From NCBI RefSeq assembly GCF_000022485.1, contig NC_012623.1, forward strand, positions 2,072,501-2,136,500: a stretch of 64,000 bases of DNA. The letters run 5' to 3'. Below, piece after piece: positions 33,705 to 54,470 of this stretch; within the stretch, counting starts at the first letter, position 1, and the number at the start of each line of letters is the position of its first letter. The stretch comes from Sulfolobus islandicus Y.N.15.51 (GTDB lineage: Archaea > Thermoproteota > Thermoprotei_A > Sulfolobales > Sulfolobaceae). The position numbers and the translations under genes are program-made. The notes below the pieces were generated by a model. It had not been told where the DNA came from, made no database searches, and worked only from the letters and a program-made list of their open reading frames with translations.

Positions 33705-33947
33705 TTGATCCCCCAAATTTCAAAAGTTAGAGTATACTATTAAATTTTTCTAAAAAAGTTTCAATTAGACATATGAAGTACTTTGTGGAAGGATTTATCT
33801 CCTTTTTAAATGCGCTTCTTAAGTTTTAAAGTAAAAATTGTATCTTGCAATCTGAAGAAAACACTTTTCCTTATCGTTTGGTTTTATGCTAGCTAAATAA
33901 ATTAAGAGGAAAATGGCTTCCTTGTTATCATAATTATTTATTTGGGA

Positions 33948-34089
33948 TTTGGGCTTCATAGGATTTCATAATATTTAATATCAATCCTCAACCCTTGGGC
34001 TTCACCAAAGTCACGGGAAAACCCGCACATACTCCTCCACCTCTTTAGCGGGATAACCCCAACCCACACCCGTGGTATTTCACGGATGT
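33948..34089 (-). mobile_element. IS607-type relic, 3' end (interrupted by a second IS607)
   Basis: The minus strand encodes VGVIPLKRWRSMCGFSRDFG then EAQGLRI, the C-terminal tail of the TnpB at 44155 (GVIPLKGRRGMNGALPRDSG), followed by the shared end GGGCTTCAT. The preceding part of the same gene is found at 36093-36190, so the element 34090-36008 sits within this older tnpB relic. Confidence 0.7.
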
Positions 34090-34152
34090 GGGCTGAATCC
34101 TTTCTCACGTTAATAGAAATCTTTTTATATTTATTTATTATCAACTAATCTT

Positions 34153-34794
34153 GTGGAGAGACTACTGAGACCTAAGGAGGCTTGCCAACTACTCAGCATT
34201 TCATACTCAACACTCCTACGGTGGATTAGAGAAGGAAAAATAAAGGTGGTAACGACTGAAGGAGGGAAGTATAGGATACCTTACAGCGAGATAAAGAAGT
34301 ACTTAGAGAAGAGGGAAGAGACGAGGGCTGTAATTTACACTAGGGTCTCCTCTACCGATCAAAAAGAGGACTTGGAGAGACAAATAAACTACCTAACAAA
34401 TTACGCAACGGCAAAAGGTTACAAAGTGGTTGAAGTACTGAAAGATATTGCAAGCGGGTTAAACACACAAAGAAAAGGATTGCTTAAGTTATTCAAACTT
34501 GTTGAGGGAAGGAGCGTAGACGTCGTATTAATAACATACAAAGATAGGTTAACAAGATTTGGATTTGAGTACATTGAAGAGTTCTTCTCAACCATGGGAG
34601 TTAAGATTGAAGTAGTTTTCGGTGAGGAGCCCAAAGATGACGCACAAGAGCTAGTTGAGGACTTAATTTCCGTCGTTACATCATTCGCAGGGAAAATTTA
34701 CGGAATGAGGAGTCACAAGAAAACACTCCTAGTTCAAGGCGTAAAAAAGCTAATAGGTGAGTTGAGTGGAGAGGACAGTGAAGTTAAGGGTTAG
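34153..34794 (+). CDS. tnpA: IS607 serine recombinase TnpA
   Basis: A 213-residue serine recombinase that moves the element. A MerR-like helix-turn-helix (RPKEACQLLSISYSTLLRWI) is followed by the catalytic domain: AVIYTRVSSTDQKEDLERQI with the nucleophilic Ser in RVSS, and YKDRLTRFGFEYIEEFF with the conserved Arg residues. Starting at GTG (34153) places the domain at the normal N-terminus. It is upstream of and overlaps tnpB. The frame is intact, so transposition competence is plausible. Confidence 0.93.
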   Translation: MERLLRPKEACQLLSISYSTLLRWIREGKIKVVTTEGGKYRIPYSEIKKYLEKREETRAVIYTRVSSTDQKEDLERQINYLTNYATAKGYKVVEVLKDIASGLNTQRKGLLKLFKLVEGRSVDVVLITYKDRLTRFGFEYIEEFFSTMGVKIEVVFGEEPKDDAQELVEDLISVVTSFAGKIYGMRSHKKTLLVQGVKKLIGELSGEDSEVKG

Positions 34795-35998
34795 GGTTGA
34801 CTATTCTACATACTCAGCACTTAAGGAGGTCGAGGAGGAGTACAGAGAGGTTCTAGAGGAGGCAATAAATTATGGGCTGTCAAACAAAACTACCTCCTTC
34901 ACCAGGATTAAAGCGGGAGTTTACAAGACTGAGAGGGAGAAGCATAAGAACTTACCCTCACACTACATCTACACAGCTTGTGAGGATGCAAGCGAGAGAT
35001 TAGAGAGTTTTGAGAAGTTGAAGAAGAGAGGGAGGAGTTACACTGAGAAACCGTCAGTGAGGAGAGTTACTATTCACCTCGACGATCATCTGTGGAAGTT
35101 CAGCCTCGACACGATTTCAATTTCCACAAAGAGGAGTAGGGTTTTCATTTCACCAACCTTCCCTAAGATCTTCTGGAGATATTATAACAAGGGCTGGAGG
35201 ATTGCGAGTGAGGCCAGGTTTAAATTGTTGAAGGGGAATGTTGTAGAGTTCTACGTCATTTTTAAGAAGGATGAGCCTAAACCTTACGAGCCTAAGGGTT
35301 TCATCCCAGTTGATCTCAACGAGAATTCAGTCTCTGTATTAGTTGATGGAAAACCGATGCTTTTAGAGACTAACACTAAGAAAATTACTCTGGGCTATGA
35401 GTATAGGAGGAAGGCAATAACTACTGGTAAGTCAACTAAGGATAGGGAAGTGAGGAGGAAGTTAAAGAGGCTGAGGGAGAGGGATAAGAAAGTAGACATT
35501 AGGAGGAAATTAGCCAAGCTGATCGTTAAAGAGGCTTTTGAAAGTAGGAGTGTCATAGTTTTAGAGGACTTGCCAAGGAGAGCTCCGGAGCATATGATAA
35601 AGGACGTGAAGGATAAACAACTTAGGTTGAGGATTTATAGATCTGCATTTTCCTCAATGAAGAATGCTATTATTGAGAAGGCTAGGGAGTTTGGTGTCCC
35701 CGTGGTCTTAGTTAACCCATCTTATACTTCTACTGTTTGCCCAATTCATGGGGCGAAGATCGTTTACCAACTCGATGGGGGCGATGCCCCAAGGGTTGGT
35801 GTTTGTGAGAAGGGGAAGGAAAAGTGGCATAGGGATGTAGTTGCACTGTACAACTTAGCGAGGAGAGCTGGAGATGTGAGCCCCGTGCCGTTGGGCTCGA
35901 AGGAGTCCCATGACCCACCTACAGTAAGTGGGTGGTTGAGGGCTAAGTCCCTACACTCGATCATGAATGAACATAAAATGATTGAAATGAAAGTGTAG
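34766..35998 (+). CDS. tnpB: TnpB RNA-guided nuclease (variant zinc motif)
   Basis: A 410-residue TnpB starting at GTG within tnpA. The RuvC-like acids are present: Asp in FIPVDLNENSVSVLV, Glu in VIVLEDLPRRAPEH and the final Asp in WHRDVVALYNLARRAG. The zinc ribbon is unusual: the first knuckle is C-P-x-H (STVCPIHGAKI) and the second keeps only one Cys (VCEKGKEKW), unlike the C-x2-C pairs of the other TnpB in this window. TnpB cuts the empty donor site using a guide RNA whose scaffold overlaps the 3' end of its own gene and the element's right end. A short tail after the RuvC motif (residues 375-410) lies in that overlap. Confidence 0.9.
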   Translation: MERTVKLRVRVDYSTYSALKEVEEEYREVLEEAINYGLSNKTTSFTRIKAGVYKTEREKHKNLPSHYIYTACEDASERLESFEKLKKRGRSYTEKPSVRRVTIHLDDHLWKFSLDTISISTKRSRVFISPTFPKIFWRYYNKGWRIASEARFKLLKGNVVEFYVIFKKDEPKPYEPKGFIPVDLNENSVSVLVDGKPMLLETNTKKITLGYEYRRKAITTGKSTKDREVRRKLKRLRERDKKVDIRRKLAKLIVKEAFESRSVIVLEDLPRRAPEHMIKDVKDKQLRLRIYRSAFSSMKNAIIEKAREFGVPVVLVNPSYTSTVCPIHGAKIVYQLDGGDAPRVGVCEKGKEKWHRDVVALYNLARRAGDVSPVPLGSKESHDPPTVSGWLRAKSLHSIMNEHKMIEMKV

Positions 35999-36092
35999 GG
36001 ACAAACGGAAACCCTAGTACTTCCAGTAAGTTTTTGTATTATTACTTCTTATTTTATGATATCCAAACGAATAAGAACTTTGTGGAATTATT

Positions 36093-40476: not shown

Positions 40477-40722
40477 GCTAGCCAAGATGAAATCTAGGCT
40501 ACAGACAAAAGGAACGTCATTTCAAGATACCCAGAAGTCAGTAGTTTCAAATAAATCGTAAGGTTTAAATTAGTTCATCACAAATTTTTATAAAATATGA
40601 AACGTAAAGAAATACGAATACGTTTAGGAATCTCATACTTACTGCTGAGAGAATACGTTAAGAAAGCTCACATAAAACCAGTTATTATCTTAAACTTTCA
40701 CTTTCCAGTAGATGTAAATCCA
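40477..40722. other. Spacer with a short uncertain frame
   Basis: A frame from 40598 (MKRKEIRIRLGISYLLLREY) remains open into the IS derivative and ends after about 55 codons. It could be the start of a small gene cut by the insertion, but nothing supports expression. The rest is non-coding. Confidence 0.3.
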
Positions 40723-40978
40723 CCGTTTGTCCCTACACTTTCATTTCAATCATTTTATGATCATTCATGATCGAGTATAGGGACTTAGCCCTCAACCACC
40801 TTATAGGTGGGTCATGGGACTCATTTGAGCCCAACGGCACGGGGCTCACATCTCCGTAATCCCCTCACCCTTTTGGGCATAACCCACATCGGCGTGAGAG
40901 ATCATCATTTATCAATAATTTTTTGTTATAAACAGATATAAAAAGATTTCTATTAACGTGAAAAAGGATTCAGCCCGA
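40723..40978 (-). mobile_element. Internally deleted IS607 derivative keeping both ends
   Basis: A 256-bp element on the minus strand. Its right part matches the left end of the IS607 at 34090 (GGCTGAATCC..TCACGTTAATAGAAATC), and its left part matches the last 130 bp of that element, including the 3' end of tnpB and the terminus GTGTAGGGACAAACGG. Everything between, including tnpA and the RuvC domain, is gone. The region that in TnpB elements encodes the guide-RNA scaffold is retained. Confidence 0.8.
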
Positions 40979-43554: not shown

Positions 43555-44146
43555 ACAATATAACTAATAGTTTAGCCCAATTATCTGAATGGCTGAAAGA
43601 GTAGAGTGTGAACTACTTCCCATTAAGGGGCATCTCCACCTCACGATAGAGATTTCCTGCTTCTCAGAGAGATCTTGATTCGTAGCTGAGGTTCCATCGA
43701 ACGGAACCGTTCTTTAATGTCCCTTGTGGAAGAGAGGTTACGGAGGGGCGTTCAGTAATAAATCTTTCGATTAATTTTCAAGCATAGTGACAGTTAAGAT
43801 TGGCACGTGACGTTATTCAATTTGATAGTGTCATTATTAAGCTATAAATTTATACTTTAACGTAAAAAAGGCGTCTCTGAGAATCTGAACTAGGTTATAC
43901 TCTATCGGAGAATTTCTCTATTTAATAAATTTGTAACTTAATGACGATACTGTCTCCATACTCATCTTTCTTCACAATTCTCATAAGTATATGTTTGCTA
44001 CTGGAGTTACAGAGGATATGCTAATTCCTCGTCATTGAATTTTGGAAAATTATAATGAGCGGAGGAATTGCACTTATGTTAGAATTTCGTTGGGCGATTC
44101 ACGGATCCTAGATAAGTTTAAAGGTTTATTTCCTTGCTATACGGGG
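43555..44146. other. Spacer with transposon remnants
   Basis: No intact gene. On the minus strand, 43745-43600 has a broken frame (GSVRWNLSYESRSL) and a terminal stem (GCCCCTTAATGGG) followed by TTCACACTC, resembling the 3' end of a TnpB-type element. A dispersed repeat lies at 43843-43950 and a MITE-end-like sequence at 44081-44108 (TTGGGCGATTCACGGATCC). Confidence 0.4.
43843..43950 (+). repeat. Dispersed repeat, copy 2
   Basis: Similar in the same orientation to 14896-15000 (see there). It is diverged, with small indels, and non-coding. Confidence 0.5.
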
Positions 44147-44154
44147 TTTGGGCT

Positions 44155-45456
44155 TCATTGAATTTTCATGAATTTGTATCCAATCCTCAGCCCTTGGGCT
44201 TCACCAGAGTCGCGGGGCAACGCCCCGTTCATACCCCTCCGCCCCTTTAGCGGGATAACCCCAATCCACCTACTCCCAGTGGGAGTAAGAAAGAGGTGGG
44301 GAAACCCGCACATCTTGAGGTAAATATTGAGAGATGCGTTTAGTTGCCTATCTAGAGTGAACCCACACCTCTCACACTTGAAAATCCTGCCGACCTTTCG
44401 GGAAACCCATCCACATCTGGGGCAGGACTTAGATGTGAGGTGTGGGTTCACCTCCTTAACGAAAGAACCATAAAGGGGAGCCTTGTATTTAAGCACGCGG
44501 TGTATAGTCCTCCATACAGTCCTTGAAACCTTCTTAGACAGCTTATCATCAGCGTCTTGGAACATTGACTGCTTATTCAACTTCTCGACAGCAAACATAG
44601 TGAGAGGATACATTCCCAACAGTTTGTTCACAAACTTGTGAACATAATCAAGCACGCGGTTCCTTTCACGGTGGGAGTACTTCCTCAACAATACCTTCCC
44701 CTTCCTACCGTGTTTAGAAGCGAAGGACTGTATTTTACTCCTCTTCAACTCCATACCGAACTTCAAACTATACAACTCCTTCAAAGAAAATGTGACGAAC
44801 TTCTCCCCATCGTAAGCGTCTAATGTGTACAAGTTACTATCAATAGATAGAAAGTCAAGGGGAGTAAACCAAGGTAACTTATAACGAAATGGTAGGTGAA
44901 CTTTATCCTCCTTTATTACTGGCTCACCCAACTCAAGCCCTTCAACCCTCCTTGAAAACCATTTGTGAGACCATGAGAAGGTGACGTATTCGTAAGGTCT
45001 TACTGTAATCCTTACACTCTCACCCTCAACCTTTCTAAGTGTCGACTTTACCCTAACGTAAACCTTCTTCAATCTAGGTTTCCTTAATGACGCTTGTCCT
45101 TTTTCAGCCCTCCTCCTCCAACTATTCAAGATTGAGTAAGCATCATTTATTGCTTTGTCAACGTAATGTGAAGCTAGATTGTTAACCTTCTCTAACTCAT
45201 CCCTCAACACCTTGTAAACTTCCTTTTTCTTTGGCAAGGTTACTTTAACCTTAGCGAAAATTTTCTTGCCCTTCTTGACCTCCTTCCTCTCTATCTTAGT
45301 CCTCTCCCATAACCAGTCTAAAGCCTTCTGTAGTAGGTGTTTATAGTTCTCTAGTAATATCTTGCTCTTCACCTTCTTATTATTCTTCAGGGAGTAAGTT
45401 AGGTAAACGTATTCCTCCTCCGGTTGGAATGATTTAAGCCTTAAGCTCTTCGACAC
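44155..45456 (-). CDS. tnpB: TnpB RNA-guided nuclease
   Basis: A 433-residue TnpB with all hallmarks. The RuvC acids are in LSIDSNLYTLDAYDG (Asp), MFAVEKLNKQSMFQ (Glu) and TLDRQLNASLNIYLKM (Asp). A canonical zinc ribbon, CPRCGWVSRK and FKCERCGF, lies between the last two. The N-terminal half is the RNA- and DNA-binding wedge domain. A long tail after the RuvC motif (about 45 residues ending KFMKIQ) lies over the expected guide-RNA scaffold. It overlaps tnpA and is probably translated by coupling. The frame is intact, and it can serve as reference for the relic at 33948-36190. Confidence 0.93.
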   Translation of the reverse strand: MSKSLRLKSFQPEEEYVYLTYSLKNNKKVKSKILLENYKHLLQKALDWLWERTKIERKEVKKGKKIFAKVKVTLPKKKEVYKVLRDELEKVNNLASHYVDKAINDAYSILNSWRRRAEKGQASLRKPRLKKVYVRVKSTLRKVEGESVRITVRPYEYVTFSWSHKWFSRRVEGLELGEPVIKEDKVHLPFRYKLPWFTPLDFLSIDSNLYTLDAYDGEKFVTFSLKELYSLKFGMELKRSKIQSFASKHGRKGKVLLRKYSHRERNRVLDYVHKFVNKLLGMYPLTMFAVEKLNKQSMFQDADDKLSKKVSRTVWRTIHRVLKYKAPLYGSFVKEVNPHLTSKSCPRCGWVSRKVGRIFKCERCGFTLDRQLNASLNIYLKMCGFPHLFLTPTGSRWIGVIPLKGRRGMNGALPRDSGEAQGLRIGYKFMKIQ

Positions 45457-46039
45457 ACTTCTTCACCTTCTCATATTTATGGCTCCTCATACCATACAAC
45501 TTTCCGCTAAATGATACCAGTATAGAGATCAAATCTTCGATTAGTTCCTGCTCTGGTGTTTTGTCCTCCTTATTTAATACCACGAGCTCGCAGTTGTGTG
45601 CTTTGCATGCCTCCTCTATTATTTCAAAGCCGAACCTAACTAGTCTGTCTGGGTAGGCTATGACAACTTTCGATACTTCGTTGTTTAGTATCATTCTCAA
45701 TAGCTTGAGGAATCCTTTTCTCTTCATGTTCAACCCAGAACCAATGTCTGTTATTACTTGGTCGTAGTCCTTAACGTTCTCCTCCAGGTACTTAACTTGG
45801 TTTATTAAGTCGTCTTTCTGTGTGTTTGATGATACCCTAGCGTATAATACTACTTTCCTCTTCCTAACAACCCCCATGAGTCTTTCGACATCCTCTTCTT
45901 TAAACCTCCATTTTCCACTCTGTAGTATCACGGGTTTTATGTAACCCTTCTTAACATAGCTCTGTAGTGTGCGGTATGATATTCCTAGTTTTTGGCACAC
46001 TTCCTTAGGTTTCAGCATTGTAGTTAAACTTACATACAA
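45434..46039 (-). CDS. tnpA: IS607 serine recombinase TnpA
   Basis: A 201-residue serine recombinase. It has a MerR-like helix-turn-helix (KPKEVCQKLGISYRTLQSYV), a catalytic domain with the nucleophilic Ser in VVLYARVSSNTQKDDL, and YPDRLVRFGFEIIEEACK. It is about 35-40% similar by eye to the TnpA at 34153 and clearly of a different subtype. The gene is intact and is the first of the two-gene element. Confidence 0.93.
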   Translation of the reverse strand: MYVSLTTMLKPKEVCQKLGISYRTLQSYVKKGYIKPVILQSGKWRFKEEDVERLMGVVRKRKVVLYARVSSNTQKDDLINQVKYLEENVKDYDQVITDIGSGLNMKRKGFLKLLRMILNNEVSKVVIAYPDRLVRFGFEIIEEACKAHNCELVVLNKEDKTPEQELIEDLISILVSFSGKLYGMRSHKYEKVKKCVEELKA

Positions 46040-54090: not shown

Positions 54091-54204
54091 GTGAGCGAAT
54101 TATTGAATATTGAGATCGATGCAAATAACTTGGAAAAGCTTGTAAAAGTATCAAATGATATTGCAGTAGATCTATCCATAGGAATTACAAAAATTGGAGG
54201 TTAA
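54091..54204 (+). CDS. Possible 37-residue small protein
   Basis: GTG-started frame reading MSELLNIEIDANNLEKLVKV then SNDIAVDLSIGITKIGG and a stop. The composition is protein-like (charged helix, then a small hydrophobic strand), but it has no recognised family and could be the end of a decayed gene. It is followed at once by the GC-rich patch. Confidence 0.25.
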   Translation: MSELLNIEIDANNLEKLVKVSNDIAVDLSIGITKIGG

Positions 54205-54470
54205 GGGGGCGAAAAGCCTCGCCAGCGGGGATGGATAGCCCCCTTATATTTAAATAATCCTTTTTTCTGAAATTCTTTTAGTGATGCTAGCGGTGCTCCT
54301 CGCCAGCTCGATTGAGGGCTTAATGGGACTGTGGGAGGAGCATCTAGTATCTCTTCCCTTTAAGGGACTAGACGTTATGGATGAAAGTCCCCTTCTATTC
54401 AGATGGGAGTGGATCTCTGATCCACTCGACTGCCCACCAGATGAGAGAGTGTCCGGAATGTAAAAAACTG
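54205..54470. other. GC-rich structured patch, possible RNA or transposon end
   Basis: A 266-base stretch near 50% G+C in a region close to 35%. It starts with GGGGGC (54205-54210) that pairs with GCCCCC (54237-54242). A later hairpin is GTGGATC/GATCCAC around 54410-54426, and TGGATGAAAGTCCCC occurs at about 54379. A 60-codon frame is open through 54281-54463 but has an unusual Leu/Met/Trp/Pro composition, so RNA or the 3' end of an IS (with its structured end) is more likely. The strand is undetermined. Confidence 0.4.

What the first reader, a model, noticed from the sequence alone, without database searches (positions are those of the whole stretch)
40723..40978. 256-bp IS607 derivative that keeps only the ends and the presumed guide-RNA region
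Seen: both ends match the 34090-36008 element, including the last 130 bp over the 3' end of tnpB; tnpA and the nuclease domain are absent. Knowledge: the TnpB guide-RNA scaffold lies at the right end, and the adjacent flank acts as guide. Inference: the derivative could supply a TnpB guide RNA with a new target (sequence next to 40722) to TnpB from the full copy, or be mobilised in trans.
Basis: partly seen in the sequence, partly recalled or inferred. Interest (0 to 1): 0.6.

Follow-up and report, generated by a model that had tools for sequence, protein, structure and literature searches.

The report
Mobile stand-alone TnpB guide-RNA gene
A 254-base piece of jumping DNA in a hot-spring archaeon has lost both proteins of its parent but appears to keep a promoter and a complete guide RNA for the parent's DNA-cutting enzyme; relatives sit in many hot-spring archaea, on a plasmid and in a virus, and whether the RNA is made and used is untested.

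Summary
The element is 40723-40976 (254 bp, minus strand). Its left 49 bp and right 133 bp match an ISC1926-type IS607 element (94% and 93% to the 34090-36008 copy). It is not a one-off: it is a copy of SMN2, a named MITE-like element (virus SMV1, 93%; plasmid pMGB1, 90%) that the literature assigned to an IS200 transposase. Six copies lie in this genome; I aligned 70 from 12 genomes, SMV1 and pMGB1.

It carries hairpin P1 of one guide-RNA-like fold: 55 pairs, 96.6% of cells paired, 53 compensatory cells against 11.9 in shuffles. In autonomous copies P1 lies inside the tnpB reading frame, where amino-acid changes covary with silent ones. SMN2 keeps P1-P5, lacks about 67 nt of coding linker, and retains the left-end TATA box. 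Similar tnpB-free RNA loci occur elsewhere in the class.

Best reading: a TnpA-mobilised element that supplies a TnpB guide RNA in trans. The structure is well supported; expression and cleavage are inferred. The window copy's guide matches only its own flank. The pMGB1 guide matches empty plrA sites on three plasmids with one mismatch each.

The parts
40723..40976 (-). SMN2-type non-autonomous IS607 (ISC1926-type) element, 254 bp
40975..40976 (-). left-end GG (exchange dinucleotide; could equally be 40974-40975)
   Evidence: GG exchange in ISC1926 as stated in PMC6188088
40723..40724 (-). right-end GG
40937..40944 (-). TATA-like box TTTTTATA (GAAATC, BRE-like, just upstream); start of transcript expected near 40914 (inference)
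   Evidence: a TATA-like motif at this place in 60 of 70 copies; the same box lies 23 nt before the tnpA GTG of the full copy
40862..40900 (-).
   Evidence: 8 of 14 pairs in P1/P1a have changes on both sides
40787..40846 (-). P2-P4 three-way junction of the scaffold (overlaps the former tnpB 3' end)
40729..40784 (-). P5, 11-bp stem GUCCCUAUACU/AGUGUAGGGAC just before the guide
40703..40722 (-). predicted guide, TGGATTTACATCTACTGGAA (flank)
   Evidence: position adjacent to the RE; unique in the window and in the genome
34090..36008 (+). autonomous ISC1926-type IS607 copy (relative; potential source of TnpA and TnpB)
34153..34794 (+). tnpA, IS607 serine transposase
   Evidence: NF033518 241 bits, cut-off 110; catalytic domain matches ISC1926 TnpA 6dgc, E 6e-85
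34766..35998 (+). tnpB, RNA-guided nuclease, putative RuvC residues D183, E267, D357 present
   Evidence: NF040570 104 bits, cut-off 100
35766..35800 (+). P1/P1a counterpart inside the tnpB reading frame (ACCAACTC...GGGTTGGT)

Best explanation
40723-40976 is a copy of SMN2, a non-autonomous IS607 element derived from an ISC1926-type transposon. It consists of the left end with a TATA promoter, a short A/T-rich spacer, and a complete, shortened TnpB guide RNA (P1-P5) that runs to the right end, so that transcription into the flank adds a guide. Shown by sequence: shared ends, GG insertion without target duplication in the family, one conserved fold on the sense strand, P1 retained although its parental counterpart is coding sequence, and intact tnpA/tnpB in the genome. 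Inferred: the RNA is transcribed from the left-end promoter, binds TnpB made by autonomous copies, and directs it to cut the empty site after excision, which favours retention or copying back of the element; TnpA moves it in trans.
For: Ends and orientation shared with the autonomous element. 70 aligned copies with mostly unique flanks in 12 genomes, SMV1 and pMGB1. Covariation: 18 of 55 pairs and 53 cells changed on both sides against 6.5 and 11.9 in shuffles (0/500 for both); slid structures 36-48% paired against 96.6%. G-U cells exceed A-C cells 214:61, and 119:45 after collapsing by genome, so the sense strand is the structured one. P1 inside tnpB covaries too: 10 double-change cells against 2.0, 99.2% paired, with Gln/Arg/Pro codons matched by silent Val codons. 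In G018, other copies keep P1 with a different stem or with the tnpB-type P1. 12 of 20 sampled RNA-model hits outside the family have no tnpB beside them. 12 intact tnpB in this genome with D, E, D kept. Empty plrA sites for the pMGB1 copy on three plasmids.
Against: No transcript or cleavage data. No fixed TAM: only GG, with T/A favoured before it. The RE itself ends in CGG before the guide, and the window copy also has C before its left GG, so it is unclear how self-cutting at the RE is avoided. Copies in genomes without intact tnpB of this type keep pairs as well, relative to random placement, as copies in genomes with it (ratio 0.62 against 0.63; 19 and 48 copies). The LE promoter may persist only because it overlaps sequence TnpA needs. 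RNAalifold with default scoring found only a weak consensus (-5.25 kcal/mol); the fold appears with RIBOSUM scoring and in single sequences. The 70 copies are related, and 26 come from one genome.
Confidence: 0.68

Rival explanations
1. A plain MITE: an internal-deletion derivative kept only because TnpA recognises its ends; the RNA fold is left over from the parent and has no present role.
For: IS607 transposition needs only TnpA (PMC6188088 passages). Copies exist in genomes without intact tnpB of this type (G012, G013, G018, G020, G029) and show the same pair-preservation ratio.
Against: P1 lies far from both ends (bases 79-117), and shows double compensatory changes within the SMN2 family; G018 copies keep P1 with other stem sequences; the sense-strand G-U asymmetry.
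Confidence: 0.2
2. The RNA is expressed but acts as a decoy: it soaks up TnpB and so restrains the autonomous element or protects the host, instead of guiding useful cuts.
For: High SMN2 copy number beside few tnpB in some genomes (G028: 10 aligned copies, 2 tnpB matches). The guide of the window copy has no second target.
Against: A decoy does not need to keep the RE/guide junction, which is kept (for example the second-last base is G in 68 of 70 copies); but TnpA needs the GG as well, so this is weak.
Confidence: 0.1
3. SMN2 is mobilised by an IS200/IS605 Y1 transposase, as published for the pMGB1 copies.
For: PMC3839810 says so (passages); an IS200/IS605 element lies beside the pMGB1 copy.
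Against: Both ends are those of an IS607 element with 94% and 93% identity; GG exchange site without duplication.
Confidence: 0.02

Closest known systems
SMN2 (Sulfolobus miniature non-inverted-repeat element; SMV1, pMGB1)
   Same: Full-length match: 93% in SMV1, 90% in pMGB1; no inverted repeats.
   Different: Published as related to SMN1 and mobilised by IS200; here IS607-derived and carrying a guide-RNA structure.
ISC1926 (IS607 family)
   Same: TnpA catalytic domain nearly identical (6dgc); GG exchange; shared ends with its relatives here.
   Different: SMN2 lacks tnpA and the tnpB nuclease; its P1 sits directly before P2 instead of about 67 nt upstream in the coding region.
SMN1 (ISC1733-dependent, IS200/IS605) and SM3A
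   Same: Sulfolobus non-autonomous elements of 164-320 bp (PMC3718332 passages).
   Different: Other transposase families; not compared in sequence here.
RAGATH-18-derived reRNA with IS607 TnpB (ISFba1)
   Same: IS607 TnpB with a guide RNA downstream of it (PMC11061315 abstract and passages).
   Different: Those RNAs lie outside the CDS and use TAM AGGAG or GAGGG; no Rfam family reaches its gathering score in the window.
SisTnpB1 of S. islandicus (IS200/IS605)
   Same: Sulfolobus TnpB with an RE-encoded guide RNA (PMC10640517 passages).
   Different: Another transposon family, TAM TTTAA, guide RNA with its tnpB in cis.
Trans-acting OMEGA RNAs and PATEs (recalled, not read here)
   Same: Guide RNAs or ends without the nuclease gene are known from IS200/IS605 systems.
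   Different: Not IS607 of Thermoproteota; from recall only.

Membership tests
SMN2 | Full-length DNA similarity to annotated SMN2 copies | tested here: met
   99% covered, 93.3% (SMV1) and 89.5% (pMGB1)
SMN2 | No terminal inverted repeats | tested here: met
   LE GGGCTGAATCC; reverse complement of the RE CCGTTTGTCCC (sequence shows directly)
Non-autonomous IS607 (ISC1926) element | Ends shared with an autonomous IS607 element | tested here: met
   TnpA NF033518 and 6dgc
Non-autonomous IS607 (ISC1926) element | Insertion at GG without target duplication | tested here: met
   69 copies; empty plrA sites for the pMGB1 copy, (G count ambiguous by one base). The window copy's own empty site was not found
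Non-autonomous IS607 (ISC1926) element | Moves in trans with TnpA | not testable with these tools
   needs a transposition assay
TnpB guide RNA (omega RNA) | Structured RNA ending at the RE, next to variable flank | tested here: met
TnpB guide RNA (omega RNA) | Same structure present at a tnpB of the same element family | tested here: met
   P2-P5 sequence in the RE, P1 in the CDS
TnpB guide RNA (omega RNA) | Transcribed, bound by TnpB, guides cleavage | not testable with these tools
   no RNA data at hand
TnpB guide RNA (omega RNA) | Defined TAM at the left flank | tested here: inconclusive
   only GG with T/A before it (T 35, A 17, C 9, G 8 of 69)
RAGATH-18 reRNA | Match to an Rfam model | tested here: not met
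Classical MITE | Terminal inverted repeats and target duplication | tested here: not met

The most novel reading that the evidence does not exclude
SMN2-type elements are mobile stand-alone guide-RNA genes spread across Thermoproteia; those on plasmids and viruses arm resident TnpB against the empty sites of rival plasmids or viruses, so the element spreads between replicons by RNA-guided cutting and repair (homing without its own nuclease). The pMGB1 copy's guide matches intact plrA on three other plasmids with one mismatch each.
Probability: 0.3. Interest if true: 0.82.

Novelty: new variant of a known kind. Interest (0 to 1): 0.6.

Why it matters
It would turn a named but misassigned archaeal MITE into a guide-RNA gene that uses both proteins of its parent in trans, and give naturally shortened scaffolds for thermophilic IS607 TnpB. 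It also shows a guide-RNA helix written inside tnpB coding sequence. The question of whether non-autonomous elements profit from TnpB becomes testable in Sulfolobus strains.

Tried and rejected
Rejected: 'keeps only the ends' (the middle is conserved). Rejected: SMN1 as the name (SMN1 is tied to ISC1733 of IS200/IS605 in PMC3718332; its sequence was not compared). Rejected: a known Rfam RNA (one chance-level mir-611 match, E 0.41; none at gathering level in the window). Rejected: a second target of the window guide.

Led nowhere: the window copy's empty site in six congeneric genomes; only one flank at a time is conserved. A candidate cross-species empty site for copy L110 failed because only the right flank aligned. 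SMV1 flanks occur only in SMV1 and SMV1a or partly in relatives, and no empty site was seen. A dependence of pair conservation on resident tnpB was looked for and not found. Scanning 105 guides against about 1 Mb of held loci (both strands, up to 3 mismatches) gave mostly 2-3-mismatch hits, many in repeats; only the pMGB1 set looked like empty sites. TnpB had no PDB match by sequence. No structure prediction was run.

Limits: copy counts are lower bounds (one search scored at most 25 candidates per genome and cut its list). The 20 loci outside the family were picked from the strong model hits, not at random, and 'no tnpB' there means no tblastn match at 1e-8 to the window tnpB beyond its 3'-terminal residues within about 2-3 kb upstream (less for two loci cut by contig ends).

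Full report
What is there. BLASTN confirms that the derivative shares its left 49 bp (46 identical) and right 133 bp (129/139 columns identical) with the 34090-36008 element. That element is IS607: tnpA scores 241 bits to NF033518 (cut-off 110) and its catalytic domain matches the solved ISC1926 TnpA (6dgc, E 6e-85); tnpB passes NF040570. The element proper is 40723-40976, because the two bases 40977-40978 vary between copies.

A family, with a name. The genome holds 6 full-length copies, 14 autonomous copies and one further left end. Of 31 genomes of the family, 20 have a match to the 256-bp query, at full length or to parts of it. The named relatives are SMN2 in virus SMV1 (93.3%, annotated as such) and a copy on plasmid pMGB1 (89.5%), which the paper calls SMN2. 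That paper (PMC3839810, passages read) links SMN2 to SMN1 and an IS200 transposase; the ends found here are those of IS607. I collected 72 places, dropped one duplicate and one copy with misplaced ends, and aligned 70 (A1).

Transposition. Flanks are unique at nearly every copy; a few M. yellowstonensis copies share flanks crosswise. Copies sit at GG, as stated for ISC1926 in PMC6188088 (passages). The pMGB1 copy interrupts plrA; pB12E5, pBEU9E1 and pHVE14 carry the uninterrupted sequence, and the joined pMGB1 flanks align across the junction at 77-81% identity, with no target duplication. The exact number of G at the junction is ambiguous by one.

The RNA fold. The window copy with 20 nt of flank folds at -85.5 kcal/mol, z -6.2, 0 of 200 shuffles as low. 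RNAalifold with default scoring gave only -5.25 kcal/mol for the alignment; with RIBOSUM scoring it gave a clear structure, with all 70 rows and with four diverged rows left out. Counted on all 70 rows, 55 pairs are 96.6% paired; 18 pairs and 53 cells show changes on both sides, against 6.5 and 11.9 in shuffles (0/500 reach either); slid versions are 36-48% paired with 9-22 double-change cells. Since the structure was derived from this alignment, percentage paired is biased; the double changes are the stronger part. G-U cells exceed A-C cells 214 to 61, or 119 to 45 after collapsing by genome and type, which points to the LE-to-RE strand.

Its counterpart in autonomous copies is inside tnpB, in the codons for YQLDGGDAPRVG, and covaries there as well: 28 sequences, 20 distinct, 99.2% paired, 10 double-change cells against 2.0, including A-U/G-C/C-G exchanges in which a Gln, Arg or Pro codon is matched by a silent Val change. 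Two other measures there do not exceed the shuffles (pairs with double change 2 against 1.4; further pair types 9 against 8.6). L183, out of register by one base, was left out of that count. In ISC1926-type tnpB a linker of about 67 nt separates P1 from P2; SMN2 lacks it. G018 holds copies with a tnpB-type P1 fused to the start of tnpA, and others with a wholly different P1 stem, most keeping the loop motif GAUG..GC-NNU-GC..AAG or close to it. I read these as further, probably independent, derivations that kept P1; independence was not tested with a tree.

Promoter. A TATA-like box lies at 40937-40944 on the minus strand, and at the same place in 60 of 70 copies; the same box stands 23 nt before the tnpA start of the full copy. 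This fits a transcript starting shortly before P1, but the left end is also needed by TnpA, so its conservation does not prove promoter use.

Is a nuclease present? Twelve of the autonomous copies in this genome have full-length tnpB without stops, and all twelve keep the putative catalytic D, E and D (D183, E267, D357 in the window copy). Catalytic residues were assigned by motif and by conservation with relatives at 43-48% identity, not by structure.

Guides and targets. The window guide TGGATTTACATCTACTGGAA is unique in the window with up to 3 mismatches; the 183-bp flank occurs once in the genome; GG plus 18 guide bases has no exact match in IMG/VR. The flank adjoins a remnant of another IS607 left end and tnpA start. 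By contrast the pMGB1 guide GATAATAGAGAGGAAGTGGC matches intact plrA on three plasmids with one mismatch each and GGGG before it.

Beyond the family. A covariance model of P1-P4 finds, in this genome, the six SMN2 copies, the autonomous copies and one weak partial hit. In the class, 91 of 229 genomes have a match. Of 20 loci outside the family chosen from the strong hits, 8 have a tnpB upstream (two of them interrupted) and 12 do not; the 12 keep P2-P5-like sequence and many have a TATA-like stretch 25-45 nt upstream by eye.

What speaks against a present role. There are no RNA data. There is no TAM beyond GG, and the element's own right end puts CGG before the guide. Copies in genomes without intact tnpB of this type keep pairs, relative to random placement, just as well (0.62 against 0.63). 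Several such genomes carry other IS607 tnpA, so the copies may still move there.

Literature. Searches of an open-licence library found no paper that describes SMN2 or an ISC1926 derivative as a TnpB guide-RNA gene. The 2007 papers on archaeal IS and on SMN1 were not held, so this is not a claim of absence from print. Trans-acting OMEGA RNAs in other systems are known to me from recall only.

Verdict. The finding is real and larger than reported: a misassigned, widespread MITE family whose conserved content looks like a guide-RNA gene. The anatomy is well supported; the function is a testable inference.

Noticed in passing
33944-34067: Right-end remnant (82% identical) of the second IS607 element of the window (44143-46039), directly next to the 34090 insertion; SMN2 copy L006 sits in a similar remnant (85%).
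   Followed up: partly
40543-40685: Remnant of the left end and tnpA start of another IS607 group (58% over 31 aa to tnpA at 45434-46039); the SMN2 copy lies just beside it.
   Followed up: partly
L066, L071, L072: SMN2 copies in M. yellowstonensis share flanks crosswise, suggesting recombination between copies; ISC1926 copies L125/L128 and L137 show the same between two species.
   Followed up: no
L154: A contig of a Caldivirga MAG holds an exact match to the SMN2 P1 pattern: transfer or misbinning.
   Followed up: no
54201-54220: The predicted guide of autonomous copy L135 matches here with one mismatch and GG before it.
   Followed up: no
L107, L108, L115 (G030): SMN2 right ends are 99-100% identical to the resident autonomous copy but 93-95% to SMN2 of other genomes: local homogenisation of the scaffold.
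   Followed up: partly
L253: A genome of another family carries an ISC1926-type element with TnpA 86% and TnpB 79% identical: likely horizontal transfer.
   Followed up: no
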